Part shown: positions 3,001 to 62,582 of the stretch, piece by piece
Layout: every line of letters starts with the position of its first letter
Numbering within the stretch: the stretch's first letter is position 1
Assembly (NCBI GenBank): GCA_918797485.1
Contig: CAKKNE010000003.1
Coordinates: 4,960,001-5,024,000 of the forward strand
DNA: 64,000 bases
Direction: 5' to 3'
Source: Pelagomonas calceolata
Taxonomy: Eukaryota; Sar; Pelagophyceae; Pelagomonadales; Pelagomonadaceae
Notes under the pieces: model-generated
The model's input: the letters and a program-made list of their open reading frames with translations, nothing else
What the model was told of the DNA's origin: nothing
Databases searched by the model: none
Translations under genes and position numbers: made by a program

Positions 3001-4826
3001 GCCGTCGTCACCGGCGCCGAGGCCGGCGCGAGCGCGATCGCCAAGATCGCCGCGGAGCACGGCCTCGACGACGAGGGCGCCGCCGACGAGGAGCACGTAC
3101 CCTGGTCGCATATTGCCAAGGAAATGGCGCACGAGAACGTCGAGCTCCACGCGGCGCTCGACATCCTCTCCGACGAGCACTCGCGCGCTCTCGCGGAGAG
3201 CGGTGACCAGTACCGCGGCGAAGTCGCGTCGCCCGCGAGCGGCGAGCGGCCCAGGCGGCGCGACCTCGCGACGGCGACGACCAAGGCGCTCGCCGGCGCG
3301 CCCGTGAAGGAGGCGGACAACGTCGTGCAGCGCGCGCTGGTCGCGCAGCGCGCGACCGCCGCCAAAGTCGCCTACGCGGGCGTCACGGCGCGCGAGGCGG
3401 TCAAGCGCCGGGTGCACGCGGCCCGCGCGTACGTGTCCGAGGAGGGGCGCGAGGCGCATGCCGAACGGAAGGAGCGCCTCGTGGCGGTGAAGACCATGGC
3501 GCCCATCATCTGCGACGCCGTCCTCCTGCGCCGCGCGGAGCTGCTCGCGTTCCGGAAGCGCATCGCTCAGGGCCGAAGCCAACGGTCCCGGGGCCTTCGA
3601 TTTGTGGGGACCCCCGGCCCCCACCCCGCGCACACTCCCCGCCCTCCGTCCGAAACGTGGCCCCAACGACCGACCGAGCGGACCACGACGCAGGCATCGC
3701 GGACCGCAAGGACAGGAAGGCGCGGCGCGCGCGGCACCTCGTGCAGATGCTCGAGGTGCGGCTCCTCAGGGACTGGGGCTGGTCGCCGGACCACGTCGTC
3801 TTCCAGCGCAACGTCGAGAACATCACGCGAAGGCAGATCAAGAAGGCCGAGGAGTGGAGCGACGCCATCGACGCGATCACGGACGACGACGCGCGGACGG
3901 AGCTCGAGCGACGCGTCGCCAAGGCGACCGAATACGAGCGCCTCTCGCACATGGGCGAGCTGGAGCAGGTTCTCTACCACGTGTCCCTCGACGCCCACGG
4001 CGTCGCCGACGAGGAAGAAGAGGAGGAAGCAGCGGAGGAGGAGGTCTCCGTCGCGTGGTACCTCGTCGCGTGGTTCGCGCTCATCTCCGTCCTCGTCTTC
4101 TTCGTGTGCGTGCCGCCGCTGGGGCTCCTCTACGTGGCGACGGAAATGGGAAACGCGAAGACGCTGGTCTGGATCTACCAGTGCTTCGTCGGGATGATGC
4201 TCTTCTACTGGGTCGTCCTCCCGATCGAGATCGCCTTCTTCCTCCTCTTCATCCCCAAGCTCGTGCGGCACCACCTCACTCAGCACTCCAAGGACAAGTC
4301 GAGCTTCCCGTACCGGACGAAGCTGCCCACGACGCCGGTCTACTACCTCTGCCAGCGCCACCCAGAACTCACCGACACGCCCGTCGGCGCGACGGCGCTC
4401 GGCCAGACGGCGCTCGACGACGCGACCGACGACGAGATCGTGGATCAGATCGTCAGCGTGCACCGCGACACGACGTGGACGCCGCCGCTGCACATGTTTT
4501 TCCTCATGACGTTCATGGGCTTGTTCATGATGCTCCCGGGCGACTTCCAGGCGATGGCCTTCGAGGAGCTCTTCACGGTCGCGTCGATCGTCGTCCACTA
4601 CATCACCAACCACGTCCTCTTCGGCACGCTCGACCTCATGGGCACGGGCGTCGGGGAGGACGACGTCGACGGCGGCATGATGGAGTTCCTCGAACTCCTC
4701 TGCATCTGCGTGATCCTCGGCCTCGCGTACCTGGGCCTATCCTTGGCCGGGTGCTCTTGCAACGGCGTGCGCGCAGCGGTAGCGCGCTGCTGCAAGGGCT
4801 GCGAGAGGCTGTTCTTCGGCTACTAG
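1..4826 (+). CDS. Large multi-pass membrane protein, 5' end outside window
   Basis: The frame is open from base 1, so the N-terminus is missing. Proposed exons are 1-3559 and 3694-4826 (1,563 residues seen), with a phase 1 GC-AG intron that yields KRIADRK across the junction. The ectodomain holds Asn-glycosylation sites, a Pro/Thr linker (about 655-850, PTxAPT repeats) and a Cys-rich block with two CLCD motifs (910-1140) just before the first hydrophobic segment (1240-1290). More membrane segments lie near 1540-1605, 1957-2015, 4054-4150, 4170-4260, 4480-4560 and 4680-4750. The 2100-3200 stretch is hydrophilic, Ala/Asp/Gly-rich and probably disordered. The Cys block before the first membrane pass recalls polycystin/REJ-like or GPS-bearing proteins of stramenopiles, but I see no diagnostic motif, so function is unassigned. 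Confidence 0.75.
3568..3693 (+). mobile_element. Introner-type intron insert in the membrane-protein gene
   Basis: The 126-bp insert is bounded by GCATCGCT (3560-3567) and GCATCGCG (3694-3701), a 7/8 direct repeat. Donor GC at 3560 and acceptor AG at 3692-3693 remove insert plus one repeat copy and keep phase 1. A second in-frame GC donor lies 12 bases downstream at 3572. Its 5' end is diverged from the other inserts, suggesting an older copy. Confidence 0.65.
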
Positions 4827-5569
4827 CGTGCCCCCTTCCTCACCCCCGAGCGGTATGCGCGACGCCCCCCGGGGGGAGTAGGCCTAAGGGGCCAGGTGCC
4901 TCCAGGAAAGTCTCCAGGACCACTGGCAGCTGGTTTCAGTGGCCGGTTCTTTGGAACGCCGTCGAGTCTCGAGACCCGCCGCCGGCATTGGCCCGGTGCC
5001 CAAGGCTCCGAGTCTAGGTTGCAAATGACCCAGCGGCTGAATCACCCGGAAGTCTCCGGAGGCTAGGGTCGGTACTATACACGTGCACGCGCCTACGTCG
5101 CATACGCCGCCGCTTCAAGCATTCTTGGCCGATTTCTCTCAGCAGCCCGCGGAGGAATAGCAACTGTTTGGCCTATTTTGCTTCCAGGGCTCTCGGAGAG
5201 CACTAGGCTGCTGCATCGATGGCGTGTGCGGTGCGTCATGCCTCGGTACTTGCCTCGGCGGGCTACGTGCGCCCATCCGCTCGACTGGTGGGCTTACCAG
5301 AGTAGATTCCCAGAGGTAACACTGGCTAGACTCGGCCCGGGATACTATTTAATTGCTCTGCTTAGAGCTAGGCCGCCTAGAGCCGACGCGGGGTCTGCCT
5401 GTTAATTAAGGTAGGATATCTTAGACTCGCGGGACAGAAATAATTCGTTGCGGTGGATGTTTTAATTCAAGTTATTTTACTTCGAGCGGGCCGGGCGTGA
5501 GAGCTCGATTTTGAAAGTTGCGGCCGGCGGCGTCCCTGATATGGCGCGCGCCAGAAAAGAAAATAGACG
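4827..5569. other. Spacer, no gene seen
   Basis: This is the convergent 3' region between the membrane-protein gene and the SulP gene. It contains short GC palindromes (for example around 4866-4876) and no frame with family resemblance. Base composition drops toward AT near 5400-5480. Confidence 0.5.
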
Positions 5570-7188
5570 TCACGAGGCCTTCTTCGAGTTCTTTCCCCCG
5601 AGCGCGGCGACAGCGGCGGCGGCGGCGAGGCCGGCGAGGAATCCGGTCGTCGGGTCGGCGACGACGGACGCGAGCGCCGTGAGCCAGGCGACCTGCGTTC
5701 GAGGGCCGTCGGCGGCTTTCCCCCCCTTGCGCTGTCTACGCCGTGTCGCGCCCCAGCTTCAGATCCGCGGAGCGCCAGGACGCCCTTGGGTCGCGCGACG
5801 CCAGGCCCGACGGCGGCAAGGACCACGGCGGCGAGCGCCGCCTTGGGCGTGGCGGCGAGCGCGCCGGCGTACGGCAGCAACGAAATCGCCGCGACGCCGT
5901 GTACGAACCCCGCCGCGCGCGACGTTGCGCCCGTCAGGCGCGCGAGCATCGATCGGCTCAACGACGCGCCGCAGGGCCCGCCCCGGAACGCGCCGGACGC
6001 GACCGACGCGACGCCCTGCGCCGCGAGCTCGCGGTCAGGCGACCACGCCTGCGTGGGATTGATTCGATCAGTGTGCCGGGTGTGCGGCGACGACGTGGCT
6101 GTGCTGGACCACGCGTGACCGATTTCCGCACAGGACCACGCGTGGCCGTTTTCCGCCTCGAACGCACTGCACACCGACACGCTCTGGAGGAAGTCGACGG
6201 CGGCGAAGACGACCGACGACTTGGCGAGCGCGGCCCACGACCTGCGCGGTCGCCCTCCCTTGGTCGCGATCGCGCGATCGCGCGGCGCGGCGACGGACCC
6301 GCCGTAGCAGAGGTCGACGAGCCGGCGGAACGGAAGGTCCCAGGGCGCGACGGCCAGGGACCGGGCGCCGCCCGCGCCCGCCGGCGGCGCGCCGACGACG
6401 CCGCCCGCGTATAATCCGGCCGCGCTCAGTCCCGTCGCGAGGCCCACGAGGACGAGGACTTCGAGGCCCGGCGGCGCGCGCCGCGGAAGCAGCGCCTTGC
6501 CACGGAGCGTGCCCACGACGACGACCGCCGAGAGCGCGGCGACGTCCCAGTCCCAGGCGCCCGGGTGCCCCGCCGCCCACGCGAGACGGACGACCTGCGG
6601 GGCGCCGCCGAGGCCCGCCGCCGCCGCCGCCGCCGCCGCGCGGGACGGCCCGGCCCACGCGGCGTCGTCGCCCGCCGCCTCGCGCAGGCGCGCCTTGCCG
6701 CCCCGGAAGAGCGCCGTCGCGCACTGCGACGAGACGACGGCGCAGCCGAAGCCCAGCTTAAAGCCGGCCTTGACCGGCCCCGGTATCCGGCGGACCGCGA
6801 CGCCGCCCGCCCCGCAGAGCGCGAGCGCCGTCGACGCGAGGCCGACGATCGTGGCGAACGCCGCCATCACGAGCACGTAGTCGTCCTCCGGGAGCGCCGC
6901 GTGCGCCGCCGCGAGCGCGTCGCGCGCGAGCATCGCCGTGATGGACCTGCGCCGGCCTGGTGGCGAAACGCGGCGACGCGGGGGAGGCGGCCCAGACGCC
7001 GGCTGTCGAGACGTCACGCCGATCGACGCCCAGGGCGACCCCGTCGCGGCGGCGAACGCCACGCATGGAAAGCCCATCGTCGCCAGGCCGCGCCAGCCGG
7101 CGACGCCGCTGACCTCGGCGTAGGCCACCGCCTGCGGGATCGACGTCAGCGCCAGCGTCACGCCGGCGATCACGTCGTTCAACATCAA
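5570..7188 (-). CDS. SulP/SLC26-type anion transporter without STAS domain
   Basis: Predicted membrane anion (sulfate-type) transporter. Four exons fit: 7188-7013, 6946-6142, 6048-5740 and 5692-5570 (470 residues). The start at 7188 opens MMLNDVIAGVTLAL..IPQAVAYAEVSG, the classic SulP first-helix signature. Intron 1 (66 bp, GT donor) joins ASIGVT to SITAML, matching the conserved second-helix motif. Intron 2 (93 bp) gives ENGHAWSPDRELAAQG, the region before the GS-rich loop. Intron 3 (47 bp, GT donor) leads to a last exon beginning VAWLTALASVVADPTTGFLAG. It ends about 18 residues after the last membrane stretch, so the cytoplasmic STAS domain typical of the family is absent. The family call is firm; substrate and membrane location are not visible. 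Confidence 0.8.
6049..6133 (-). mobile_element. Introner-type insert in SulP gene, perfect 8-bp repeat
   Basis: The 85-bp insert lies between two exact copies of GCGTGGTC (read on the minus strand; 6141-6134 and 6048-6041). It begins CTGTGCGGAAATCGG and ends CCCACGCAG. The GC that opens the left copy serves as donor and the AG closing the insert as acceptor. Because the intron is 93 bp and stop-free, an unspliced reading looks like one open frame carrying a false AWS repeat. Confidence 0.85.
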
Positions 7189-7865: not shown

Positions 7866-9943
7866 TCAGGGCTGGGCGGACGGGCCTTCCGGCGATTCCG
7901 GCCGGGACGCGGTCCGCGCGGCGCGCACGCGCGCGGCGATCGACGGCGGGAGCGCGGCGTCGAGCGCGTCGGCGTCGCCGGCGGCGACGAGGACCTCGGC
8001 GCAGCGATCGAAGAGCGTCGGCGGTTCGAAGTACCCGCAGAGGACCAGCGTGCCGTTGTTGCCGCACGCGACCTCGAGCACGTCGCGGCGCGTCGCCTTG
8101 AGGCGCGCGACGAGGCGCGGGAACTGCTCGTTCTCGCCCGAGCCGTGGCCGAGCTGGCCCTTGTTGCCGGCGCCGCACGAGTAGACCTCGCCGTCCGCCG
8201 TCAGCGCCACGCTGTGCTCGCCGCCGCACGCGACCTGGGCCACGCGCTTCCGCGCGAGCGTCTCGACGAGCCGGAAGTCGGGCTGGTACGGGTGGCCGCG
8301 CTCGTTGTGCGGAAACGCCTCGGGGTCGCCGAGGCCGAGCTGGCCCTGGAAGTTCCGGCCGCAGACGTAGCAGGCGCCGTCGGCCGTCAGCAGTGCCGTG
8401 TGGCCCCAGCCGGCGACGACGCGCCGGACGCGGAGCCCCGCGACCGACTCGACGCGCCGCGGCCGCGGCACGAAGTGCGCGCCCTCGCCGTTCCGCGGGA
8501 CGACGTCCTCGTTCGCGTAGCCGAGCTGGCCGACGCGGTTGTGGCCCCACGTGTACACGTCGGACCTGGGTAGAAACCAAGGTCGTGGGCATCTCGCAAA
8601 AAAGTCCCAGGCGAATCGGACGCGCTGGTTGATTGCCACACAGCCGCGGACGGCGAGACGAGCGCGACGGTGTGGTAGCCGCCGGGCCCGACCGAGATCT
8701 CCCGGACCGCGCGCCCGCCGAACGCGCCCGCGAGCGGCCGCGGCGCGAGCACGTCCGCGGCCGCGCCGTGGCCCGTGTACTCGTGCTTGCCGAAGCTGTA
8801 CGCCACGCCGTCGACGCCCAGCGCGCAGGTGTGGACGGAGCCCGCGTTCACGCGCCTGAGCGGGCGCCGCGGCCAGAGCGCCTCGACCAGGGACGGCTCG
8901 TGGCGGTCGTCGACGTCGCCCAGGCCCAGGCGCCCGTTCTCCCCCGCCCCCCACGTGTAGAGCGCGCCGTCGCGCGAGACGGCGGCCGTGTACGCAAAGC
9001 CGCACGCGACCTGCGCGCAGACGACGCCGGCGAGGCCGCCCCGGACGAGCCGCGGCGCCTTGAGCGACCGCACGTCCCCGTGGCCCAGCCGCCCAAAGCC
9101 GCCGCGGCCCCACGTGTAGACGTCGCCGTCGCGCGTGAGGACCGCCGCGTGCTGGCCGCCGCAGCAGACGCTCGCCACGGGGAGGCCCAGCAGGCCCTCG
9201 ACGAGCTGCGGCGACGCGTCGCCGCCGTTCGCGTCGTCGTCGACCGTGCCCATGGCGTAGACGACGCGCGCCGGGTCCGAGAGCGCGACGAACGCGGCGT
9301 AGAACCCGCCGCGCGACGCGAAGCGCCCGAGGCGCGCCATCGACACGAACTCGTTGCGCGCGGTCACGCCGAGCGCGGGCCGCAGCGCGTCGACGGTGCC
9401 GCGCGGTTGCTCGCCGAACTCGTCGACGACGGCGCGCGCGAACTGGCGCCAGGGCACCTCCGTCGAGTACCGGCCGAAGCGCTCGATCCAGAGCAGCCTC
9501 GTCGGCACGTCGGCGATGGTCGCCTCCGCGTCGTCGTCGCCGAGCGCGCCGCCGGCGTAGCTCGCCGCCGCGCGCGCGTCGGCCGACGACGCCTCGGACG
9601 ACGACGCGGTGAGCTGGCGGACCTTGCGCTCGACGTTCTTCAGGGTCGACAGCGGCGAGCGATCCCGGAACTCGGCGCCGAAAAAATTGCTCCGCTTCTC
9701 GCGCAGGTCCTCGAGCGCGCGCCGCGCCGCCTCGGCGCACGCGAGGAGGTACGCCAGCCGCGGCCGGCCCGCGCGCGGGCCGTGGACGGCGCGCAGGGCC
9801 CCGTAGAACGCCGCCGCGAGGCCGCCCGTCGCCGGGTACTTCTCCCGCAGCGGCTCGCCGCCCGCTTCGAGAAGGTCGAGCGCCGCGAGGCAGGCGTAGA
9901 CGACCCGCTTCGCCTCGTCGCTCGCGCCTGGTGAGCCCGACAT
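7866..9943 (-). CDS. RCC1-repeat (beta-propeller) protein
   Basis: Two exons, 9943-8652 and 8565-7866, give 663 residues starting MSGSPGASDEAKRVV. The N-terminal ~210 residues are helical and of unknown type. The rest carries RCC1 repeats: repeated DGDVYTWGRGGFGRLGHG, YTWGAGENGRLGLG, YTWGHNRVGQLG, CGRNFQGQLGLG and SCGAGNKGQLGHG blocks separated by V.CG..H..AL motifs. RCC1 repeats form a propeller used in guanine-exchange, chromatin or ubiquitin-ligase adaptors; nothing here picks one role. The junction VALVSP-SDVYTWG restores repeat spacing exactly. An alternative donor 12 bases later would add four residues (SAAV). Confidence 0.82.
8566..8643 (-). mobile_element. Introner-type insert in RCC1 gene
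   Basis: The insert begins CTGTGTGGCAATCAACCAG on the minus strand, closely matching the ends of the inserts in the glycosyltransferase and NSF-like genes. It is bounded by GTCCGCGG (8651-8644) and GTCCGACG (8565-8558), a 6/8 repeat. The donor GT is the start of the left copy; the acceptor is CCCAG. Confidence 0.75.
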
Positions 9944-10217: not shown

Positions 10218-10221
10218 AAAG

Positions 10222-10908: not shown

Positions 10909-10960
10909 TCCGACGGTGTTTTGAAGTCACGGTGAATGCCTAAAAGCGGCAAGAGCGCCC

Positions 10961-11112: not shown

Positions 11113-12685
11113 ATGTCTGCTATAGGTACGACAAGTTTTGACGCCATGGCGCTCGCCGTTGTCGCGGCCGCGCTTTTCGTGGTGGGCGTCGCGTGCTGGC
11201 TGGCGACGTCCGGCCGGCTGCGACCGCGGGACTCGCCCCCCGTCGTGCGCGAGGGCAAGCCGATCGTGGGCAACCTCCTCGGCTTTGCGCTGGGCAAGCG
11301 CGGGCCGCTCGACTTCATCGAGCGGAACTACCACCGCTACGGCGGCGCGCGCCCGCGCGAGTGATCGCGTCGCGCGCGCCGCCGCGACGGTGCGTCGCCC
11401 CGGCGCAGGCGCGTTCTCGATGCCGCTGGGTCCCAAATGCCTGACGTTCGTCGTGGGGCCCAAGACCGTCGCGCCGTTCTTCCGGAACCGCGACGACGTG
11501 TTCAGCCAGCCCGAGGTCTACGGCTTCATGACGCAGGTCTTCGGAAAAGGCGTGGTCTACGACGCGACGCCGCCGAAGCGCAAGGCGCAGAACGTGAACA
11601 TGAGCCGCGGCCTGCGCGCGGACCGGCTGAAGTCGTACGTGCCCAAGATTCTGCGGGAGACGGAGGCCTACTTCGCCGAGAAGTGGGGCGAGAGCGGCAC
11701 GGCCGATCTCCTCGTGACGCTGTCGGAGCTGACGATCCTCACGGCCTCGCGGTGCCTCCACGGCGACGACGTGCGCGAGAATCTCTTCGCCCAGGTCAGC
11801 GAGATCTACCACGACCTCGACAAGGGCATCACGCCGCTCTCGTTCTTCTGGCCGACGGCGCCCGTCGAGGGCCACCGGAAGCGCGACGCCGCGCGGCTGA
11901 AGATGGTGGAGCTCTTCGGCGACGTGATCAAGGCGCGCCGGCGGCAGACGCCGGAGCAGGCCGCGGCGCGCACCGACATCCTGCAGGTCTTCGTCGACAT
12001 GGTCTACAAGGACGGCACCAAGGCGACCGACGACGAGATCACGGGGCTGCTCATCGCCCTGCTCTTCGCCGGCCAGCACACGTCGAGCGTGACGTCGACG
12101 TGGACGCAGCTCTACATCCTCGCCGACGACAAGCTGGCCGCGCGCGTGCGCGCCGAGCAGGCCGACGTCGTCGGCGGCGCCGCCGCGCCGCTCGTCTTCG
12201 ACGACCTCAACAAGATGGCGCTGCTCCACAACTGCATGAAGGAGGCCCTCCGCATGCACCCGCCGCTCATCATGCTCATGCGAAAGGCCATGCGGGCCGT
12301 GCCCATCGAGACGGACGCGGGCGCGCGGTACGTCATCCCCAAGGGCGACGTCGTCTTCGCGGCGCCCGCGATCCAGGGCCGCCTGGCGACGTGCTGGACG
12401 GCCCCGGACGCGTTCGACCCCGACCGCTACGCGCCCGGCCGCGAGGAGCACGCGATGCCCTTCGCGCACATCGGCTTCGGCGGCGGCATCCACCAGTGCA
12501 TGGGGCAGCAGTTCGGCTACTGCCAGGTCAAGACCATCCTCTCGTGGCTGAACCGCAACTACGACATGGAGATCGTCTCGGAGTTCCCCGAGCCCGACTA
12601 CACCGCCATGGTCGTCGGGCCCAAGGGCAAGCCCATGGTGAGGTACGTCCGCAAGGCCGCCGCCGCGGCGGCGGCGGCGGAGTAA
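11113..12685 (+). CDS. CYP51: Sterol 14-alpha demethylase, cytochrome P450 family 51
   Basis: Removes the 14-alpha methyl group of sterol precursors at the ER membrane using P450 chemistry. Exons 11113-11344 and 11409-12685 give 502 residues. An N-terminal anchor (MALAVVAAALFVVGVACWLA) precedes the Pro-rich hinge and GNLLGFALGKRGPLDFIE. The first intron joins YGG to AFSMPLGPK, the CYP51 pattern. FGKGVVYD, the I-helix AGQHTSS (a CYP51 hallmark), ExxR in EALRMHPPL, and the heme loop FGGGIHQCMG are all present. The frame after TACGGCGGC runs into TGA if the intron is not removed. Length is normal for the family, and identification is secure from the AGQHTSS plus heme-loop combination. Confidence 0.93.
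11353..11408 (+). mobile_element. Short introner-type insert in CYP51
   Basis: A 56-bp insert starts CCGCGCGAG, the same nine bases that open the first Wee1 insert. It is bounded by GCGCGCGC (11345-11352) and GCGCGTTC (11409-11416), 6/8 identical. Donor GC at 11345 restores YGGAFSMPL; a second GC donor lies 12 bases on. GC-rich context makes chance similarity more likely here than at the other sites. Confidence 0.55.
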
Positions 12686-21274: not shown

Positions 21275-23466
21275 ATGGACCCAGACCAGCAGGTCGCGCG
21301 CCTAGAGAAGCTGATCGTCCGCCTCGGCGGCTTCCCGGACCGCGATTTGATCCACCAGATCACGGAGTGCGGTCGCTTGGGGCTCCGGACCGGCGGCCAG
21401 GCCCTGGCGGAGCGCATGTGTGCCGCGATCATGGACGTGCTCGACGACGGAGAGAACGGCGCGACGGCCGCGGAGCGGCGCGTGCCGCTCTTCTACGCGC
21501 TGGACTCGGTCGTGAAGAACGTCGGGGACGTGTTCCAGCCCCTCCTGAGCGTGCGGGTCCGGGCCGCGTTCGGGCGCGCGTTCGCCGCGTGCGCGGAGAA
21601 GGACAAGACGCGCCTGCACCACGTGCTCCGGACCTGGAACGAAAAGAGCGCGGCGGCGGCGCGGACGCCGCCTTCCTCTTTTTCCCGCTCCGATCCGACC
21701 GCGGGCGGGGGGCCGATCGCGCCCGGCGCGCAGGCATCTTCGCCGAGCACCTCGACGAACTCAACGCGCTCGTCGCGCCGTGGCACGCGGCTCTCGTGGC
21801 GCGCGCGTCGGCGGCCGACGCGGCGGCGGGCCCGGCCGCGGCGCGGGCCGCGCCGTCGCAGGCGCAGCTCGCCGCACAGAGGGTCGCGGACCGCGAGGAG
21901 GCGCGGCGCCGCGCCGCGCGCGTCGCGCCGCCGCCGCCGGCGACGGGACCGCCGACCGCGCGCGCGCCGGCGCCGCGCGCGCGCGCCGCCGCGCGCGCCG
22001 GCGCGCAGCTGGCGCCGCGGCGCCTCGCCGGCGGCGACGCCACGCTGGCCGGCGCGTCGGCCGCCGCGCGCGCGGCCGCGAGCCTCATGACGCACGCGCA
22101 TCGGGCGACGGCCGGGCACGAGGTCGCGCTCCCGTCGTTCGCGCGCTTTCCCGCCGGCGGCGAGCCCCCCGCGAAGCGCGCGCGGTCCGCGGCGGCCGCG
22201 CCCGCCGGCGACGACGACCCGCTGACGGCGGCCGCGCGCGCGAAGCTGGACCAGCTCCAGCGCTCGCTCGGCGAAGCCAACCCCATGACGCTCGAGGAGC
22301 TCAAGGCGTCCCAGCCCGAGATCCACGCGAAACTCCTCGCCGAGGCCGCCGCGCGCGATCCGCGTCCCTCGGAACGGTCTCCGTCGTCACGCGCCACCCG
22401 TCTCCGCGCGCAGGCCGAGATCCGCACGGCCGCGCGCGCGCGCGCGCCGGGACGCCGCGCGATCGCCGCCGCCGCGGCGCCCGCGCCCGCGGCGGCGCCC
22501 GACGGCGCGCCGGTCGGCCTCGGGGCCGACGTCGTCGCCGCGCTCGAGGCCGTCCGGCGCCACGGCGACGATTTGATCGGCGGCCTCGCGGCGCGCGGCG
22601 CCGCGTACCGCCGCGGCGAGGCGCCGACGCCGACGACGCCGGAGCTGTCGGCCGGCGCCCGCCGCGTCGCCGAGCAATTCCGCGACGAGCTCGAAAAACG
22701 CCGCGCGGCGGACGACGACGCCAGAACCGCCCGGGCCCGGGCCCGCGCGCGCGCTTCGGCGGCGCCCGCCGACGCCCCGGAGCCGCGCGCCGCGGTCGAC
22801 GGCGGCGACGTGGCGCGCGTCGGCGCCGTCGCCGCCGCGCAGCCGCGGTACGTCCCGCGGCCGACGCCGTCGATGCCGGGGGTCTACGAGCTCTCGACGG
22901 AGGCGCTCGCGGCGGCGCCGAACGCCGGCGCCGTCGACGCGCTCTACGCGGCGTGGCCCGAACAGTGCTCCGCCGACGCGCGGCGCTTCATGGACGCCGC
23001 GGCGCGCGACGCCTGGCTGGACGTCGTCTTCGCGCGGAACCAGGCGCGCGCCGAGCGCGCGCGCGGCGCGACGAGCCGGCCCTGGAACCCCGCGCGCGCG
23101 GCCTGGCTCGCGGACGGGACCGCCGAGGCGGCCGCCGCCCCGGACGACGCCCTGGCCCCGGACGCCGCCGACGGGACGGACGCCCTGGCCCCGGACGACG
23201 CCGACGACGGGTGCGCGCGCGTCGTCGTGCCCGACGACGCGGCGCCGACGCCCTGCCGCGTCTGCGGCGAGGCCTTCGACGTCGCCTGGGACGCGACCGC
23301 CGGCGAATGGGTCCTCGCCGCCGCCGTCTCGGTGCCGGTCGACGACGGCACCGACGCCGTCGTGCACCGCGCGTGCCGCGACGCCGTCTGCGGCCGCGGC
23401 GGCACGCTCGAGGCCGCGGCGCTCGTCCCGGTCCCGTCGCCGCCGCCCGGACCGACGGCTCCCTAA
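21275..23466 (+). CDS. Pcf11-like pre-mRNA 3'-end processing factor (CID protein)
   Basis: Probable cleavage-factor subunit that reads the phosphorylated CTD of RNA polymerase II. Exons 21275-21647 and 21734-23466 give 701 residues. The N-terminal CID (residues ~1-140) shows LIVRLGGFPDRDLIHQITE, LFYALDSVVKNVGDVFQPLL, and across the intron LRTWNEKSIFAEHLDEL. The middle is Ala/Arg-rich and disordered. The C-terminus has the Pcf11-type zinc element CRVCGEAFDVAWDATAGEWV followed by an HxxC (VHRAC). The intron uses GC at 21648 and AG at 21732-21733; no convincing 8-bp repeat flanks it. A second cryptic intron near 22,370-22,418 (ending CGCGCAG) is possible but keeps frame either way. Start: the ATG at 21275 places MDPDQQVARLEKL at the CID start. 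Confidence 0.8.
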
Positions 23467-24192: not shown

Positions 24193-25846
24193 ATGTTCCT
24201 CTCCCCCGTGCCCGGTTCGCCGGCCGAGGAACAGCCTCCTCCCGCGGCGGACTTTTACCCGCAAGCGAAGCTGGGGTTTGGCGGCCTCTCGATGGACGAC
24301 GAGGGCGACGCGCGCATGAGCTCGCCGCTCGCGACGCGGCCGCTCAAGCGGAACAAGCTCGCGACGCCGCGCGACAAGGGGACGCCCGCCTCGCGCGCCT
24401 CGACGGCGACGGACGGCGTCGACAGCGACGCGAGCGCGGGCGCGGCGTCGGACGACGACGAGTGCGGGGGCTTCTCGCTGCGCGTGCCGCGCGACGGCGG
24501 CGCGGGGCCCGCGCGGAGCCTCTTCGGCCGGCGCGAGGGCGGCCCCGGGCGCGAGGCGCGCGACGCGCCGCCGCCGGCGAACGTGAACCCCTTCGCCCCC
24601 CGCGACCTGAACCGCTGCGACTCGATCGACACGAACAGCGGGTCGTGGACCTTCGACGGCGGCCTCAAGCCGGCGCTCGCGGCGCCCGCGGCGCCGCGGC
24701 GCGGCGCCGCCGGCGCCCGCCGCGACGCGGCGGCCGACGCCTCGTCGCGCTTCCGCAACGACTTCGAGGTCGTGCGCGAGATCGGCGCCGGGTCGTTCGG
24801 GACCGTGCGCAAGGTCCGGTCGCGCATCGACGGCTGCCTCTACGCGGTCAAGTCGACGCACGCGCGGCCCCGCGCGAGACGTCGGAAACGAGGCGCCGCC
24901 CGAACCTTCGAACGCCCGCGCAGGCGCAGTTCCGCGGCCAGCTGCACCGCGACCGGACGCTCAAGGAGGTCTTCGCGTTGGCCGCCCTCTCCGCGCGCGA
25001 CGAGGGCGCCGAGGGCCTGCGGCACATCGTGCGCTACTACCAAGCCTGGATCGAGGACGAGCGGCTGTACATTCAGACGGAGCTGTGCGACGCGTCGCTG
25101 GAGAGCCGCGTCCGCCGCGGCCGCTTCCTGCCGACGCCCCCGGCGGTCTGGGGCTTCCTCCGGCAGATGCTCCTCGCGCTCGAGCTGCTCCACGCGCGCG
25201 GTCTGGTCCACCTCGACCTCAAGCCGGGCAACATCTTCGTCAAGGGCGAGGACCCGCGCGGAAGTCGTGTTGCCGCGGTCTCGCCCCCCGCCCGGGGCCG
25301 GGGGGCGAGCGCGCGCGGGGGGCGCGCCTCGGACGACGCGCGTGTCACGCAGGCGAGGACTGCTACAAACTGGGCGACTTTGGCCTCGCGACGACCGCGC
25401 GCGCGCGCGGCGACGTCGTCGAGGGCGACGCGCGCTACATGAGCAAGGAGCTGCTCGACGACGACGATTTCATGTCCGGCGGCAGATCCGGTCCGCGCGA
25501 CCTGACCAAGTGCGACGTCTTCTCGCTCGGCGCGACCGCGTTCGAGCTCGTGCGCCGCGCGCCGCTCGCGGCCAACGGGCCCGCGTGGCACGCGCTCCGC
25601 GACGGCGCGGCGGCGTTCCCGGCGACGGTCCCGCGCGACCTCCGGGACGTCATCGCGGGCCTCGTCCACCCGAACCCGGCGTGGCGCCCGACGGCCGCCG
25701 CGGCGCTCCAGCATCCCGAGCTCCAGTCGGAGGTCCAGCGCATGGCCCTCCAGCTCGCCGCCGAGAAGCAGCACGTCCAGCAGTACCGCGAGGACGTCGC
25801 GCGCCTCTCCAAGCACCGACTCGCCCGTTCAAACACGTGGGCCTGA
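24193..25846 (+). CDS. Wee1-like cell-cycle kinase
   Basis: Inhibitory CDK kinase of the Wee1/Myt1 family, restraining entry into mitosis. Exons 24193-24861, 24924-25245 and 25353-25846 give 494 residues. The N-terminal ~190 residues are disordered with Ser-Pro sites. Then come FEVVREIGAGSFGTVRKV (glycine loop), CLYAVKST (catalytic Lys), a Wee1-type insert (LKEVFALAALS.. HIVRYYQAWIEDERLYIQTE), HLDLKPGNIFV (catalytic loop) and YKLGDFGLAT (DFG). The Trp in YYQAW and the IQ.E hinge are Wee1 family traits. The second junction reads NIFVKGEDCYKLGDFG only when the left 8-mer GC donor is used. C-terminal to the kinase are a coiled-coil-like LQLAAEKQHVQQYREDV tail and stop. Confidence 0.85.
24870..24923 (+). 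mobile_element. Introner-type insert, Wee1 intron 1
   Basis: A 54-bp insert opening CCGCGCGAG and ending CGCCCGCGCAG lies between GCGCGGCC (24862-24869) and GCGCAGTT (24924-24931), only 4/8 alike. Donor GC at 24862 gives KSTH-AQFRG; a GC donor 12 bases on adds ARPR. The repeat is weak, so assignment rests mainly on the shared ends. Confidence 0.5.
25254..25352 (+). mobile_element. Introner-type insert, Wee1 intron 2, perfect 8-bp repeat
   Basis: A 99-bp insert between exact copies of GCGAGGAC (25246-25253, 25353-25360). It begins CCGCGCGGAAGTCG, ends GTCACGCAG and contains a long GC hairpin (CTCGCCCCCC...GGGGGGCGAG). Using the GC that opens the left copy as donor restores IFVKGEDCYKLGDFG without gain or loss of residues. 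Confidence 0.85.
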
Positions 25847-35927: not shown

Positions 35928-37407
35928 TCACGCCGTCGCCGGCGCGTCCAAGCGGACGAGGAGCGCCGCGATGCCGGTCGCCAGCGTGTCTCGAAGCTGC
36001 TTCGAGTCGAGTTCCAGGTCCAGGCTCTCGCGGGGCCCGTCGCCGACGAGGCTGAGACACGCGTTGGGCGACGCGTCGACGGACGCCTGGCGGCGGAAGA
36101 CGGCCGTCGTCTTGCCGCGCACGAGCCGCACGCCGCGGACGAGCGGAAATCGCTTCGCGGCACCTTTACTTCCGGACTTCTTCGCGCCCGCCGGGCCCCA
36201 CGCGAGCTCGTCGGTGCGCGGGTCGAGAAACAAGCGCCGCGCCTTGGGGTTGCCGGCGCGCCCGTGCTTGCGGCAGTCGACGCCCGCCACGAGCCTGGCG
36301 CGGGTCTCGGTCGCCGCCGCGCGCGCCAGGTCCTCCTCCAGCTTGGCCGCGTGGAGGCGTTCCGACTCGGCGCGCGCGGCCGCCTCCGCCTCGGCGCGCT
36401 CGAGGTCGAGGCGCTCGCGCCGCGCGTCGGCCTCGGCGCGCGCGGCCTGCGTCGGAACGCGCGCGTTGCCATGCGGCCGCGGGCGGGGCCGCTCTCGGTC
36501 CCGACGGGCGACGCGGTCGATATGCGTGAGGGGAGCGCCGGCCGGCGCGCGCGACGCGGCGACTTGAGCGGAAGGCGCCTCGAGGACCCGCGCGGCGCGC
36601 GACGCGTTCGCGCTCGCCCCTCGCCCGCTCCTCTTCGCCGCGGCGCCGCTCCTCCAGGACGCATTCGTCGACCTTTTTGCGTTGCTTCTTCAGCTCCTCC
36701 TCGAGGACGTAGGCTCGTCCGCGGTGCTCGTTCGCGAGCTTCTCCTTGTCGGCCAGCTTGTCGCGGGCGGCTTGCTCCGCCTCGGCCGTCGTCCTGAGCC
36801 GGTCCCGCAGTTCGGCGTTCTCGGCCTCCAGCGCCGCGACGCGCCGCGCGAGCGCGTCGCGCGCCGCCGCGTGGTCGTCGCGCTCCCGCAGAAATTCGGC
36901 GCGCGCGGCGTCGCGCTCCGCGGCGCCGGCCCGCACGAGCTCCGCCGCCGCCGCCTCGGCGTCGCGCGCGGCCGCGAGCCGCGCGCGGCTCTCGTCCAGC
37001 TCGTCGCGCAGGTGCCGGATGCCGTCGCCGAGCGCCGCGGCGTCGCGCCTCGACGCGTCGCGCTGCCGCTCGGCGGCGGCCGCGCGCGCGTCCAGCTTCG
37101 CGGCCCGCGCCTCGAGCTTGTCCGCGCGCGCCGCGGCCGCGTCGCGCTGCGCCGCGGCGGCGCGGTAGTTGCGCTCGAGGGCCTCGGCCTGCCGCGCGCC
37201 GGCGCGCATCTTCTCGACGACGTCGTCGAAGAACTGCTTGGCCCTGACCTTGGTGTCCAAGGTCCTCGCCGCGGCCGACGCCTCGACGGCCCGGAGCTCG
37301 TCCTCGCGGGCTGCGAGCAGCGCGGCGAGCTCGGGCGCCGCGTGCGCCGCCCCGGGGTCGTCGGGCGCCATCCAAGGGTTCCCGCTTTCCTGCTGCTGCT
37401 GGAGCAT
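35928..37407 (-). CDS. Long coiled-coil protein with small C-terminal domain
   Basis: Exons 37407-36604 and 36446-35928 give 440 residues from MLQQQQESGNPWMAP. Residues ~25-320 are an almost unbroken Ala/Arg/Glu coiled coil (LAALLAAREDELRAVEASA and onward) continuing across the intron (GERER-AARAEADARRER). The last ~115 residues form a globular unit, KHGRAGNPKARRLFLDP then TDELAWG, VRGVRLVRGK and a C-terminal LLVRLDAP. The pattern 'R.L.LD..T.EL.WG' is typical of PH-like domains that open with KHG(R/K), so a membrane- or cytoskeleton-linked coiled-coil/PH protein is plausible. No orthologue name can be given. Confidence 0.72.
36447..36595 (-). mobile_element. Introner-type insert in the coiled-coil gene
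   Basis: A 149-bp insert opening CCGCGCGGGTCC and ending TCCGACGCAG lies between GTCGCGCG (36603-36596) and GCCGCGCG (36446-36439), 7/8 alike. Donor GT is the first dinucleotide of the left copy; an in-frame GC donor follows 12 bases later. Phase 0. Confidence 0.7.
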
Positions 37408-45358: not shown

Positions 45359-45832
45359 TCACAGCTCGGCCTCGGTCGGCGTGCACGTCTGGAGGCTGTC
45401 GATGGCGTGGATTGCGCCCGAGTCAAGCTCGTCGCGGATGCTCCGCATGACAAGCTGTTGGCGTTTGACGCGCGAAAGTCCCTCGAAAAGTGCAGAGACC
45501 TGTGTGCAAACCACTCCGTGTGTTGAAGCCGTCGAAAGTGCCCTGGCAGAATACGCAAACGATGGAGACGTGCGTGCCATTTGGGTCGTCCTCCGAGTTG
45601 GTGACCTGCGGTATCCATTTCTCTCCATGCGGCCAACGCTGGTTTTATCTACGCGGTGGGCGACCCTCAACGACGTGGGCTCCAACGCCGCCGTGATCTT
45701 CTCCTCGCACCGCGCCACGCTTCCCGCGGCCGTTCGAACGACGGCGCCGGCGCGCGGCCTCAGGGGGCGGCGGACCAATAAAGCGCCGCTGTACTGCGTG
45801 ACGAGGAAGGCGTGGAGCAAGGTCGCACGCAT
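45359..45832 (-). CDS. BolA-family protein
   Basis: BolA proteins bind monothiol glutaredoxins and [2Fe-2S] clusters in iron-sulfur trafficking. Exons 45832-45665, 45605-45555 (only 51 nt) and 45499-45359 give 119 residues. A leader MRATLLHAFLVTQYSGALLV and Arg-rich stretch may target an organelle. The fold reads EKITAALEPTSLRVTNSEDD, GTHVSIVCVSALFEGLSRVK, QQLVMRSIRDELDSGAIHAI and TCTPTEAEL. The THVSI.VVS..FEG signature and the final TPTE are conserved. The +strand frames and the unspliced frame both break this motif, so the tiny middle exon is needed. Intron 1 is introner-like; intron 2 is a conventional GTATTC...CACAG. Confidence 0.85.
   Translation of the reverse strand: MRATLLHAFLVTQYSGALLVRRPLRPRAGAVVRTAAGSVARCEEKITAALEPTSLRVAHRVDKTSVGRMERNGYRRSPTRRTTQMARTSPSFAYSARALSTASTHGVVCTQVSALFEGLSRVKRQQLVMRSIRDELDSGAIHAIDSLQTCTPTEAEL
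45606..45656 (-). mobile_element. Introner-type insert in BolA gene
   Basis: A 51-bp insert starts CCGCGTAGATAAAACCAGCG and ends GGATACCGCAG, flanked by GTCGCCCA (45664-45657) and GTCACCAA (45605-45598), 6/8 alike. Donor GT opens the left copy; use of it yields SLRVTNSEDD, the conserved BolA reading. Confidence 0.65.
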
Positions 45833-57307: not shown

Positions 57308-60300
57308 ATGGCTCCCCGCGTACTACCACAGAGCGCCGTCCTCATCGTCACGGTGGTCGCCGTCGTCGGGGCCTTCCGCGCGCCGCGATCCGGCCTCGCG
57401 CCGCGGCCGCGGCAGGCACCCGGCCCGCGGCGGCGCGACGCGCGCGCCTTTTCGGCGAGCGAGATCACTCCGGACGCGTTCACGGAAAAGGCGTGGGAGG
57501 CGCTGCAGGGCGCGTCGCAGGCCGCGCAGGCGCGCCGCGGCGGCGTCGTCGAGCCCGAGGACCTGCTGGGCGCGATCCTGCGGCAGGACGGCAACGGGCT
57601 GCTGAACCGCGCGCTGCGGTTGTGCGAGCCGCCGGCGGATCCCAGGGCGCTGGCGCGGCTCGCGCAGGACAAGACGGCGGGCTTCCCGACCGTGTCCGGG
57701 TCGTCGGCCGCGCCGGGCTTCGGCCCGCGGGCGCAGGCGGTCGTCCAGGAGGCCTTGGCGGAGGGTCGCCGGCTCGGCGACCGGTACTGCTCGAACGAGG
57801 TGCTGGGGCTGGCGCTGCACGCGCCGGACGCCTGCGGGCCGCTCTTCGCGGCCGCGGGCGTCGCCGCGCCGGCGACGCTCCGGGCGGCGGTCGACGCGCT
57901 CCGGGGCGACAAGACGGTCGACACGCGGACGCCGGAGGCCACGACGGACGCGCTCGACCAGTACGGTCGCGACCTGACGAAGCTGGCCCGCGCGGGCAAG
58001 CTGGACCCCGTGATCGGGCGCGACGACGAGATCAAGCGGACGATCCAGATCCTGAGCCGCCGGACGAAGAACAACGCCTGCCTCGTCGGCGAGCCCGGCG
58101 TCGGCAAGACCGCCATCGCCGAGGGCCTCGCGCAGCGCGTCGTGAGCGGCGACGTGCCCGAGGCGCTCCAGGGCCGGACGATCGTCTCGCTGGACATGGG
58201 CCTGCTGATCGCCGGCGCCAAGTACCGCGGCGAGTTCGAGGAGCGCCTCAGGGCCGTCATCGAGGAGGTCGAGGCCGCGGAGGGCCGCGTCATCCTGTTC
58301 ATCGACGAGATCCACACGGTCGTCGGGGCCGGCGCCTCGGGCGGGGCCCTGGACGCGTCGAACCTCCTGAAGCCGGCGCTCGCGCGCGGCGAGCTCCGGT
58401 GCGTCGGCGCGACGACGCTGGCCGAGTACAAGCAGCACGTGGAGGCGGACAAGGCGCTCGAGCGGCGGTTCCAGAAGGTGCTGATCCGCGAGCCCGACGT
58501 CGAGGCGACCGTGTCCATCCTGCGGGGCCTCAAGCCCAAGTTCGAGGCGCACCACGGCATCCGCGTGCTGGACAGCGCGCTGGTCGCGGCCGCCCGGCTC
58601 TCGGACCGCTACGTCGCGTCGCGGTTCCTGCCGGACAAGGCCATCGACGTCGTCGACGAGGCGGCGGCCAAGCTGAACAACGAGGTGACGTCGCGGCCGC
58701 CGGCCCTCGACGCGGCCGACCGCCGCGCGATCGAGCTCGAGATGGAGAAGGTGAGCCTGACGTCGTCGCTCGTCGAGACCGCGACGCCGGAGGACAACGA
58801 CGCGCGCGTGGCCGAGATCGACCGCGAGCTCGCGGCGCTCCACGACGAGCGGCGGCGCCTCGAGGACGCCTGGCAGGCCCAGCGCGCCAGCGTCGGCAGC
58901 GTCGGCGAGCTCAAGGAGACCATCGCCGCGAAGCTCAAGGAGGCCGAGGGCCTCGAGGCCGACTTTGACCTCCAGCGCGCGGCGGAGATCCGCTACACGG
59001 AGGTGCCCGCGCTCGAGGGCCGGCTGGCGGCGGCCGAGGCGGCGCTCGAGGGCGGCGCGGCCGAGAGCCTCGTCGCGCGCGACACCGTGACGCCCGACGA
59101 CGTCGCGGCCGTCGTCGCCGCCTGGACGGGCGTCGCGACCGCGCGGCTGGTGGCCACGGAGCGCGACAAGCTGCTTCATCTCGAGGAGACGCTCGCGCGG
59201 CGCGTCGTCGGCCAGCCCGACGCCGTGAACCTCGTCGCCGACGCGGTCCGGCGGTCCAAGGCCGGCCTGGGGGACCCCTCGAAGCCCATCGCCGCGTTCG
59301 CGTTCCTGGGCCCGACGGGCGTGGGCAAGACGGAGCTCGCCAAGGCGCTGGCGCAGGAGGTCTACGACGACGCGGGCGCGCTGCTGCGCTTCGACATGTC
59401 GGAGTACGCGGAGAAGCACACCGTGTCGCGCCTGCTGGGGGCGCCGCCGGGCTACGTCGGCTACGACCAGGGCGGCCAGCTCACCGAGGCCGTGCGGAAC
59501 CGGCCCTACTGCGTGATCCTCTTCGACGAGATGGAGAAGGCGCATCCCGACGTCTTCGACACGTTCCTCCAGCTCCTCGACGACGGCATCCTGACCGACG
59601 GCCAGGGTCAGACGGTCAACTTCCGCGACGCCATCGTCCTCTTCACGTCCAACGTCGGGTCGCAGCTCATCCTCGACTCCGTCGCGGACTTTGCCGTCGT
59701 CGCCGCCCGCGTTCGAGACGCCTTCCTCGCGACACGCCTGCGAGCTCGCGCGCCCTCGCGACCGGCCCGGGAACGAACACGCGACTCGCCGCGAGAGCCG
59801 CCCGCGCAGGTCGACGCCGCCGGCGACGCCGACGGCGCCGCCGAGCTCACGGAGATCAAGCGCAAGGTCCTGGACGCGATGCGCGCCAAGTTCCGGCCCG
59901 AGTTCCTGAATCGGCTCGACGAGATCGTCGTGTTCAACCCGCTGCGCAAGTCGATGCTCGCCGACATCGTCCGGCTCGAGGTCGCCGCCATCGCGCAGCG
60001 CCTCAACGCCACGCACCAGGCGTCGCTGTGGGCGGGCCCCGGCGCGACACTCGACCGCTCGCATCAACCGGAAGGCGGCGAAACATGTGAGCAACACACG
60101 CAGGTCGAACCCGACGCCGTCGAGCAGTTGGCGCTGAGCGGCTTCGACGCCGCCTACGGCGCGCGGCCGCTCAAGCGCCTCGTGACCAAGGCGCTCGAGT
60201 CGCCGCTCTCTCGGGCCATCCTCAATGACGAGCTCCACGCCGGCGACACCGCCGCTTTCGTCGTCGAGCACGAGCGCCTCGCGCTGCAGATTCGACGCGG

Positions 60301-60821: not shown

Positions 60822-62582
60822 TTACGGCATCGCGGCATCGATGCACTCGAACGGCTCGAGAAGATCGCGAAGGGCCTCGTCGGAGGCGGCGTTGACGGTG
60901 GCCAGAACGAGCAGGCGGTGGTCGCCGCACGCGTCGTCGTCGCGGAGGAGCGCCCGGAGGCACGGATAGAGGTCGGGGTGCAGGAGCTCGAGGTCGTGGA
61001 GGACCACGGCGGCCGAGGGCGAACCTGAATAGAAATCAAAAGTTCACGCCATCGACGCGACGCCATCCCGCGACCGCGTCTGCGCGCCGGCGTGGAGGTT
61101 GACGAGGATCTCTCGCAATAACTCTCGGGTGACCTGACTCACTGGTTGATTTCCACGCAGGGGCGAACGCCGCGCGTCGTCGAATAGCTCGACGAGGCTC
61201 CGGCGCGCCGCGTCGACGTCCCGGCCCGCCAGGTGGGCGGCCGCAACGGTGCGCTGGAAGGCCAGCGCCGGGGTGTCCTCGAGGACCGCGGCGGCGGTTG
61301 CCCTCTTCCTCGCGCCGCGCGGACCCACGAGCGCGACGGCGGCGCGCCGCTCGTCCGAAGTCGAGGCGGTTGCGACGACACGAGCGGCCCTTTCCCGGCA
61401 CGCCGCTAGCGACGCGGCGGGAAGGTCCCCCGCGGGCGGCCCGGCCCGGCGCGCGCGCCCGAAGACCGGCACGACCTCGTCGGCGCCGCGCAAGAGGTCG
61501 TCCGCGGTGACGACCACGGCGTCCGGATCGTCGGCCGCGACGGCGCGCTGAAGCGCGTACGACGTGGCGTTGCGAACGGCGGCCTCCAGCTCGGACCCGC
61601 TAAAGTTCTGCGTTTTCTCGTCGGCGACGCGACCGAGGACGTCGGCGAGCCGCTCGCCGTCGAGCGCGAGCGCGGGCCCGAGCTTTGCCGCGTGCAGCGC
61701 CAGGATCTCGCGGCGCCCGCTGGCGTCGGGCAGCGCGACCTCGCAATGTACTTCGAGGCGACCGGGACGCAGCGCCGCCGGATCGATCAGATCCATACCT
61801 GCGCATCCGACTATTGCGCCGTGGTTGATACATGGACCCATCAATTTCCGCGCGGGCAACTCGCGATTGGTGGTGCCGATGACTAGGAGATTGCTCTGGT
61901 CGTCCAGCCCGTCGAGCTTGGCCAGGATCTGGTTGACGACGCCGTCGCGCGCCGCGCCGCCGAAGCTGCCGTCCCCGGTGGCCCCGCCGCCGCGCTTCCG
62001 GAGTATGCTGTCGCACTCGTCCAGGACGACGACGTGGAGCGACGACTGCGAGCCCATCCGCGCCCACTCGTCGTCCGCCGGCTTGAAGAGCCCCCGGACC
62101 GCCTGCTCCGACGCGCCCAGGAGGTGCGAGAACACCTCGGGTCCCCGCACGAGAATCGGCTTGCGATCGCTGAGGAGCTTGGCGATGCCGCGGGCGATCA
62201 GCGTCTTGCCCGTCCCCGGCGGGCCGTGCCTGCGCGCAATCGAAAAATTCGCTGCTCGACGACGAACGCGCCGTAAATCTGTTTTGCGCCCCGCAACGCG
62301 CAGGAGCAGGCCGCGCGCGTGGCGCAGCCCGCAACGCTCGCGCGTCTCGCGCGACACGAGCCGCGACGTGAGGACGCGTCGCATGACGGCTTCCAGCTCG
62401 CGCCCGAACCCGCCGACGCCGAGCGCCGCGCCCAAATCACCACTCGCGTCGAGGATGGCCCGGCGCTGCTTCTCGGCGACGCTCCGGCTGCTCGAGAGCG
62501 CCGCGCGACCGAACCGCGCAGCAGCCGCGCGAGCGGCTGGTGGCATCATTCCGTGTGCAGTGTTTGGCACTCTTGGGTGCAC
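60822..62582 (-). CDS. NSF-like AAA protein lacking the N-domain, degenerate D2
   Basis: Exons 62582-62302, 62229-61865, 61798-61169 and 61024-60822 give 492 residues. NSF disassembles SNARE complexes. D1 is convincing: LGVGGFGRELEAVMRRVLTS, GLRHARGLLLHGPPGTGKTL (Walker A), VVVLDECDSILRKRG (Walker B), and after splicing GTTNRMDLIDPAALRPGR (second region of homology). The usual ~200-residue N-domain is absent; the leader AARAAAARFGRAALSSSRS looks organelle-type. D2 is recognisable (LVELFDDARRSPSAAVVLHD, LLVLATVNAASDEALRDLLE) but its Walker A reads VGPRGARKRA and lacks the GKT. It stops early at DAAMP. Either a divergent paralogue or a decaying copy. The start may instead be 62549. Confidence 0.75.
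61025..61160 (-). mobile_element. Introner-type insert, NSF-like gene, perfect repeat and TIRs
   Basis: A 136-bp insert between exact copies of GTTCGCCC (61168-61161 and 61024-61017). The 5' end CTGCGTGGAAATCAA and inverted 3' end CTGAATAGAAATCAA share 11 of 15 bases. Two GT donors 12 bases apart are in frame; the first restores ARRSPSAAVVLHDL. The clearest complete example in the window. Confidence 0.9.

What the first reader, a model, noticed from the sequence alone, without database searches (positions are those of the whole stretch)
3560..61168. Most introns are transposon-like introners with 8-bp target repeats
Seen: at 13 introns the 8 bases after the acceptor AG resemble the last 8 exon-side bases before the insert. 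Four are exact (SulP GCGTGGTC, Wee1 intron 2 GCGAGGAC, glycosyltransferase GAACTGGA, NSF-like GTTCGCCC); three more differ at one base (membrane protein, glycosyltransferase intron 1, coiled-coil gene), as does ClpB intron 1. The inserts begin near CYGYGYGGAAATCAA and end in its inverse. Known: introner elements of Aureococcus and Micromonas are non-autonomous DNA transposons that create introns. Inference: this genome region carries a population of such copies of different ages.
Basis: partly seen in the sequence, partly recalled or inferred. Interest (0 to 1): 0.85.

Follow-up and report, generated by a model that had tools for sequence, protein, structure and literature searches.

The report
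Introns made by small jumping DNA
In this stretch of a GC-rich microbial eukaryote's chromosome, many of the gene-interrupting introns look like short transposons that landed in genes, copied 8 bases of the target and are spliced out again; this way of making introns is already known from marine algae, and this set mainly adds detail on where the splice sites come from.

Summary
A scan for the terminal sequence with flanking repeats finds six loci scoring 26 or more of 32, against none in ten simulated windows. Among pairs chosen by the ends alone, five loci have 6-8 of 8 repeat bases and every other pair 0-4. Of 16 introns I could place, 11 keep at least 6 of 8 repeat bases, four exactly.

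Removing one repeat copy plus the insert restores frames, and proteins that align without a gap to SLC26 transporters and Myt1. One pair of copies shares interior sequence in opposite orientations.

My refinement concerns the 5' splice site. The repeat begins with GC or GT in 15 of 16 introns, so the donor is probably borrowed from the duplicated target while the TIR supplies CAG. For Aureococcus sp. the published account is that both sites lie in the element and 12 nt are added (PMC9860276). That +12 donor exists here in 13 of 16 introns and is missing in three. No RNA, second genome or transposase was available; the host is unidentified. Known kind, probably a new member.

The parts
3560..3693 (+). 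introner-type intron in large membrane-protein gene; TSD GCATCGCT/GCATCGCG 7/8 (right copy 3694-3701)
   Evidence: length 134, not a multiple of 3; joined
6049..6141 (-). introner-type intron in SulP/SLC26-like gene; TSD GCGTGGTC 8/8; element 6049-6133
   Evidence: ungapped across the junction to two SLC26-type chains; Pfam 67.7 bits exact vs 59.3 with +12 nt
8566..8651 (-). introner-type intron in RCC1-repeat gene; TSD GTCCGCGG/GTCCGACG 6/8; element 8566-8643
   Evidence: removal gives the spacing of the protein's other RCC1 repeats (by eye); RCC1_2 65.0 bits exact vs 54.3 with +12 nt, RCC1 63.4 vs 63.1
11345..11408 (+). short GC-rich intron in P450 gene, GC donor, TSD GCGCGCGC/GCGCGTTC 6/8
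   Evidence: first-exon frame runs into a stop if unspliced; joined first 140 residues match p450 profile 5-104 with 23.4 bits, the unspliced ORF only from position 37
21648..21733 (+). probable old intron in CID-domain gene, repeat no longer visible (2/8)
   Evidence: placed by frame and by eye, joined protein not tested
22339..22413 (+). possible intron 2 in CID-domain gene, TSD GCCGAGGC/GCCGAGAT 6/8, in frame; weak
   Evidence: one search gave 22323-22413 with a coding-like interior; left border moved by eye; no homologue check
24862..24923 (+). intron 1 of Myt1/Wee1-like kinase gene, GC donor, TSD 5/8
   Evidence: ungapped to Myt1 across the junction
25246..25352 (+). introner-type intron 2 of Myt1/Wee1-like kinase gene; TSD GCGAGGAC 8/8; element 25254-25352
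   Evidence: ungapped to Myt1; Pkinase 134.5 bits exact vs 132.4 with +12 nt
30618..30703 (-). introner-type intron 2 of GT64-like glycosyltransferase gene; TSD GAACTGGA 8/8 (GA, not GY); element 30618-30695
   Evidence: shares an 18-bp interior with the NSF intron in inverse orientation
33028..33209 (-). introner-type intron 1 of GT64-like glycosyltransferase gene; TSD GCCCCCGG/GCCCCCGT 7/8; element 33028-33201
36447..36603 (-). introner-type intron in coiled-coil gene; TSD GTCGCGCG/GCCGCGCG 7/8; element 36447-36595
   Evidence: (score 23, within the null range); length 157, not a multiple of 3
45500..45554 (-). old intron in BolA-like gene, GT donor, 3' TIR 10/12, repeat 3/8
   Evidence: (extended TIR 18/24; 0.2 expected); BolA 44.7 bits spliced vs 33.7 unspliced; the gene's first exon was not resolved
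59699..59809 (+). introner-type intron 1 of ClpB gene; TSD GTCGCCGC/GTCGACGC 7/8; element 59707-59809
   Evidence: its 37 codons are part of a longer stretch absent from ClpB chains of known structure
61025..61168 (-). introner-type intron of NSF-like AAA gene; TSD GTTCGCCC 8/8; element 61025-61160 with the best TIR (24/24 extended)
61799..61864 (-). second intron of NSF-like gene; 5' TIR 12/12 (one base further in) but repeat 2/8
   Evidence: extra residues absent from Sec18 and NSF chains
62230..62301 (-). third intron of NSF-like gene next to the P-loop; GC donor, repeat 4/8
   Evidence: extra residues absent from Sec18 and NSF chains; AAA 102.4 bits with introns 2 and 3 removed (fragment) vs 81.5 unspliced

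Best explanation
A family of short (about 47-174 bp) non-autonomous DNA transposons with terminal inverted repeats (CTGYGYGGAAATCAACCAGTGAGT and its inverse) has inserted into protein-coding exons, duplicating 8 bp of target. The TIR ends in CAG, so either end gives a ready 3' splice site and orientation does not matter. The 5' splice site is most often the first two bases (GC or GT) of the left copy of the duplicated target, so that splicing removes one repeat copy plus the element and leaves the old mRNA unchanged. Twelve bases further on (8 of target + 4 of TIR) the TIR usually carries its own GY, an in-frame fallback that would add four codons. Shown here: the 8-bp repeats, the TIRs, one pair of copies in opposite orientations, the restored frames and protein lengths. 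Inferred: transposition by a transposase made elsewhere, splicing itself, and which donor is used.
For: Six TIR+TSD loci against none as good in ten simulated windows; repeats in 5 loci chosen by the ends alone; 8-bp edges. Exact removal gives open frames in the eight genes joined and in the P450 part; 10 of 16 introns are not multiples of 3. Ungapped alignments across junctions with two SLC26-type chains and Myt1. GT64_2 and NSF_1 share an 18-bp interior (E 9e-7) in opposite orientations. Donor: GY at the repeat start in 8 of 9 clear repeats (p 2e-5), the mirror RC at the repeat end in 2 of 9, as composition predicts; 15 of 16 right-hand copies start GY, p 0.001-0.003 even given the G. The +12 position is not GY in BolA, CID_1 and NSF_2, and within the first 24 nt of these three introns the only in-frame GY is the repeat start.
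Against: No RNA reads, no empty site in a relative, no transposase, no copy of the family outside the window. Ten of 16 donors would be GC, which is unusual, and the donors lack the usual downstream consensus. GT64_2 would need a GA donor while its TIR offers GT at +12. G after the acceptor is a common exon preference, so part of the GY signal has another cause. Older donors were placed with GY in mind, so only the right-hand copies count as independent. For the six scan loci alone the start-versus-end contrast is 5 of 6 against 1 of 6, Fisher 0.08. NSF_2 keeps a 12/12 5' TIR but no repeat, which simple decay does not explain. Protein-length tests cannot separate the two donor models, because exact removal equals the empty site by construction. 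Both orientations rest on one pair of copies.
Confidence: 0.72

Rival explanations
1. The same introners, but the element carries both splice sites: donor GY at TIR position 5, acceptor CAG. Each insertion then adds 12 nt (8 of TSD + 4 of TIR), as published for Aureococcus sp.
For: The legend of Fig. 2F in PMC9860276 describes this geometry. GY is present at +12 in 13 of 16 introns; GT64_2 has GT there and only GA at the repeat start.
Against: It gives no reason for GY at the start of the repeat (15 of 16) without the mirror bias at its end. It is not available in BolA (GG), CID_1 (CG) and NSF_2 (CG) (no other in-frame GY nearby). It would add residues beside the NSF P-loop. The example genome in the paper is a TARA MAG, and genus-level TARA genomes were left out of that paper's RNA-seq test.
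Confidence: 0.2
2. Introns gained by tandem duplication or double-strand-break repair of a short exon stretch, which also leaves direct repeats at both ends.
For: Direct repeats at splice borders alone would fit; SulP_1 holds a third copy of GCGTGGTC inside a near-duplicate of the exon end.
Against: The repeats have one constant length, and inserts in unrelated genes share inverted terminal sequence.
Confidence: 0.03
3. Ordinary old introns, or unspliced in-frame coding inserts, with chance similarity in GC-rich DNA.
For: Six of the 16 introns are multiples of 3; GC-rich coding DNA gives many chance repeats.
Against: Null tests; 10 of 16 break the frame if kept; higher AAA and BolA scores after removal.
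Confidence: 0.03
4. RNA-level spread (reverse splicing of intron copies), as proposed for fungal introners.
For: Not excluded for the most decayed introns.
Against: 8-bp repeats and TIRs, and a pair of copies in inverse orientation, which reverse splicing would not be expected to give.
Confidence: 0.02

Closest known systems
Introners of Aureococcus sp. TARA_AOS_82_MAG_00129, family 4 (PMC9860276, Fig. 2F; abstract, results section and methods passages seen)
   Same: 8-bp TSD, a splice donor 4 bp inside the element so that 12 nt are added in frame, similar length (their example spans 77 positions; the RCC1 element here is 78)
   Different: The authors read both splice sites as carried by the element, +12 nt in mRNA; here the repeat start itself looks like the usual donor. 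Sequences could not be compared: theirs are not held.
Introner elements of Aureococcus anophagefferens and Micromonas pusilla (Huff et al. 2016; not held; known here through passages in PMC10228655, PMC7789003 and PMC9481584)
   Same: [quoted passage not shown] direct repeats and TIRs of constant length in A. anophagefferens
   Different: A. anophagefferens elements have a characteristic length near 210 bp; here the elements are about 47-174 bp
Introners of Amoebophrya (PMC7789003, passages seen)
   Same: Inverted repeats inside, direct repeats at the borders
   Different: Direct repeats of 3-5 nt and many non-canonical splice motifs there; 8 bp and mostly GY...AG here

Membership tests
Introner (intron-generating transposon) | group of introns in different genes with similar sequence reaching the splice borders | tested here: met
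   TIRs shared across genes; beyond the ends only one pair of the nine compared has similarity below E 0.01, an 18-bp interior
Introner (intron-generating transposon) | insertion created the intron (empty site in relatives) | not testable with these tools
   no relative found in the collections searched; only protein families point to a formerly uninterrupted gene
Introner (intron-generating transposon) | spliced from mRNA | not testable with these tools
   no RNA; frame and protein evidence only
Non-autonomous TIR DNA transposon (MITE) | target-site duplication of constant length | tested here: met
   8 bp; five of 16 introns show 5/8 or less
Non-autonomous TIR DNA transposon (MITE) | terminal inverted repeats | tested here: met
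   8-13 of 20 between the two ends of one element (nine elements), better against the consensus
Non-autonomous TIR DNA transposon (MITE) | autonomous partner with the same ends | not tested
   no genome held; no transposase among the 28 ORFs given to Pfam, a part of all ORFs
Aureococcus-sp. type introner (12 nt added) | element carries both splice sites; 12 nt gained | tested here: inconclusive
   GY at +12 in 13 of 16 introns, absent in 3; repeat-start donor better supported
hAT or other superfamily with 8-bp TSD | related transposase or family-specific TIR | not tested
   no transposase available; TIRs were not compared with any transposon library

The most novel reading that the evidence does not exclude
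This introner family has a built-in choice of two in-frame donors. If the duplicated target happens to start with GY, that is the 5' splice site and the mRNA is unchanged; if not, the TIR's own GY 12 nt downstream rescues the frame at the cost of four codons. The palindromic ends make this work in both orientations, and the 12-nt gain described for Aureococcus sp. would then be the fallback, or a gene-model choice, rather than the rule.
Probability: 0.4. Interest if true: 0.5.

Novelty: new member of a known kind. Interest (0 to 1): 0.4.

Why it matters
Introners are a leading explanation for sudden intron gain. A family whose 8-bp duplication plus a 4-nt TIR offset keeps the frame with either donor shows how one transposon can land almost anywhere in a coding exon, in any orientation, and still be tolerated. 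It also gives a clear, cheap test (RNA junctions) of a published reading. The general phenomenon itself is known.

Tried and rejected
An unanchored search for any TIR + 8-bp repeat was swamped by GC-rich coding repeats (587 pairs) and was replaced by the consensus scan. A home-made gene finder placed genes but merged them or missed short GC-rich introns; many of the introns it printed were not followed up, and junctions were settled by frame, homology and eye. In the sense-strand scan (60 rows shown) I took rows such as 41940-42112, 33294-33342 and 40958-41074 (6-7 of 8 repeat bases, coding-like interiors) as chance without further test, while keeping CID_2, which is no better by that score; without CID_2 the counts are 10 of 15 with at least 6/8 and 14 of 15 GY. 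Two more possible introns (SulP near 5716-5768; ClpB near 60026-60103, extra residues) and a first BolA intron were left out because no junction convinced me; the first two lack a clear repeat, so leaving them out raises the share with repeats.

My first reading was the published 12-nt model. The protein-length tests looked like evidence against it, but exact removal is the empty site by construction, so they only support insertion; the donor question rests on the GY bias and on the three introns where +12 is not GY.

Relatives: seven IMG/VR contigs matched a 17-mer of the TIR. Their best element score was 26 (L005: 511 bp, 5' end 7/12, repeat 7/8, the other end matched by construction), the same as the lowest of the six window loci. 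In L005 and its relative L007 the 17-mer lies in a 378-codon open frame, so I take them as chance; the other contigs scored 25 or less. Three further repeat patterns and one protein found nothing. No tRNA or Rfam match. The host is not identified; GC 68% and the 8+4 geometry suggest a pelagophyte such as Aureococcus (A. anophagefferens 67.4% GC, table in PMC9481584), which is inference.
Full report
What was checked. The window is GC-rich eukaryotic DNA (mean 68%) with gene families such as proteasome, P450, RCC1, Ulp1, Rad21, ClpB and NSF-like AAA. No genome is held for it.

Is it more than chance? Scanning both strands for the terminal consensus, its inverse, and matching 8-mers outside gave 9 rows at scores 26-30 (6 loci, three of them found on both strands because the ends are palindromic) and none as high in ten simulated windows; at 25 there was one real row, a sub-pair of the NSF locus, and 0.2 expected. 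The consensus was taken from these loci, which inflates its share of the score. The coiled-coil locus scored 23, where chance gives about 7 rows, so it rests on its gene context; the membrane, ClpB and P450 introns were likewise found through reading frames or by eye. Choosing pairs by the ends alone gave 24 rows: 8 rows (5 loci) had 6-8 of 8 matching repeat bases, the other 16 had 0-4. Over nine introns, partly chosen for their repeats, the match is 7-9 of 9 at each of the eight repeat positions, 1-2 of 9 just to the left and 4, 1, 2, 3, 6, 3 of 9 to the right; in the six scan loci it is 5-6 of 6 inside and 0-3 of 6 outside.

Are they insertions into genes? Exact removal of one repeat copy plus the insert gives open frames in the eight genes joined (RCC1, ClpB and membrane show one stop; in RCC1 and ClpB it lies at the end, in the membrane protein its place was not printed) and in the first 140 residues of P450. 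The CID gene was not joined, and the first BolA exon is not resolved. Ten of the 16 introns have lengths that are not multiples of 3, so the frame needs their removal. The joined SulP fragment aligns without a gap across the junction to SLC26A6 (8opq) and to the sodium-independent sulfate anion transporter 9iar; the kinase aligns without a gap to Myt1 across both junctions. The RCC1 repeat regains the spacing of the protein's other repeats (by eye). The NSF-like ORF has two stretches, introns 2 and 3, that Sec18 and NSF chains lack, and its AAA score rises from 81.5 to 102.4 bits in a fragment without them; the alignment ended before NSF_1, so that intron has no such check. BolA rises from 33.7 to 44.7 bits. 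The joined P450 start reaches 23.4 bits against a cut-off of 22.8, while the unspliced ORF matches only from profile position 37.

Orientation. Among nine elements compared, GT64_2 and NSF_1 share 18 exact bases (E 9e-7) and an 11-base stretch, in opposite orientations relative to their genes; no other pair is below E 0.01. Both still end in CAG at the 3' side because the ends are inverted copies of each other.

Which 5' splice site? Two in-frame donors are possible: the first two bases of the left repeat copy (mRNA unchanged), or GY at position 5 of the element (12 nt added). The latter is what Gozashti et al. describe for Aureococcus sp. in the legend of Fig. 2F (PMC9860276; abstract, results section and methods passages seen). 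For the former: the repeat starts with GY in 8 of 9 clear cases against 20% expected, while the mirror dinucleotide at the repeat end is at background (2 of 9), which a symmetric target preference would not give (Fisher 0.015; for the six scan loci alone 5 of 6 versus 1 of 6, Fisher 0.08). Across 16 introns the right-hand copy starts with G in 16 and with GY in 15; given the G, the chance of that is 0.001 to 0.003. Six introns placed by frame, homology or eye (P450, CID_1, Wee1_1, BolA, NSF_2, NSF_3) are all GY in the right-hand copy (p 0.03 given the G). At +12 the dinucleotide is GY in 13 of 16; it is GG in BolA and CG in CID_1 and NSF_2, and in these three the repeat start is the only in-frame GY between the first base and base 24 of the intron. 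BolA also has in-frame GT 6 and 15 nt upstream, and NSF_2 GC 12 and 30 nt upstream. Against it: GT64_2 starts GA and has GT at +12; ten donors are GC; part of the G excess may be the usual exon preference after AG; the older donors were placed with GY in mind. Scores of joined fragments are higher for exact removal than for +12 (SulP 67.7 vs 59.3, RCC1_2 65.0 vs 54.3, RCC1 63.4 vs 63.1, Pkinase 134.5 vs 132.4), but that only shows what the gene was before insertion.

Loose ends. NSF_2 has a perfect 12-base 5' TIR, one base further in than usual, but no repeat (2/8), so simple ageing does not explain it. The SulP_1 intron holds a near copy of the exon end with a third GCGTGGTC. No mobilising gene was seen among the 28 ORFs given to Pfam, which are a part of all ORFs.

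Compared with what is known. A review passage says that Huff et al. found co-opted splice sites and insertion in both orientations (PMC10228655), and another passage says that A. anophagefferens elements have direct repeats and TIRs of constant length (PMC7789003). The phenomenon is therefore known. What may be new is the family itself and the evidence that, with an 8+4 architecture, the repeat start is the usual donor. I searched the held library and did not see this point in the listings or in the passages seen (also PMC12768974, and PMC12730881); Huff et al. 2016 itself is not held, so it may be there.

Noticed in passing
window 38741-39249: Intergenic 509-bp element with about 12-13-bp inverted ends (AAGGGGCCGGCAC) and an exact 8-bp flanking repeat CTTTGCGC: perhaps another DNA transposon, unlike the introners in its ends.
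   Followed up: partly
window 26002-26742: Reverse-transcriptase fragment (Pfam RVT_1, 63.7 bits) ending near an (ATTT)n run; its flank resembles repeats at 18118-18273 and 54618-54796.
   Followed up: partly
window 10137-11042: About 0.9-kb AT-rich stretch with 92.5% direct copies (80 bp) and 80% inverted copies (about 125 bp) near its ends, between the RCC1 and P450 genes.
   Followed up: no
window 34365-34457 and 51290-51382: Two 93-bp copies, 95.7% identical, in intergenic DNA.
   Followed up: no
window 35762-35879 and 38590-38636 / 39251-39316: Inverted repeats (about 91%) flank the coiled-coil and WD40 genes.
   Followed up: no
window 6106-6170: In the SulP gene the end of the exon and the start of the intron are near copies of each other (about 27-nt period, by eye), so the 8-bp repeat occurs three times.
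   Followed up: partly
window 61799-61864: NSF_2 intron has a perfect 12-base 5' TIR but no flanking repeat.
   Followed up: partly
window 62672-62753 and 26820-26845: GGTACCGTA-type simple repeats in intergenic DNA.
   Followed up: no
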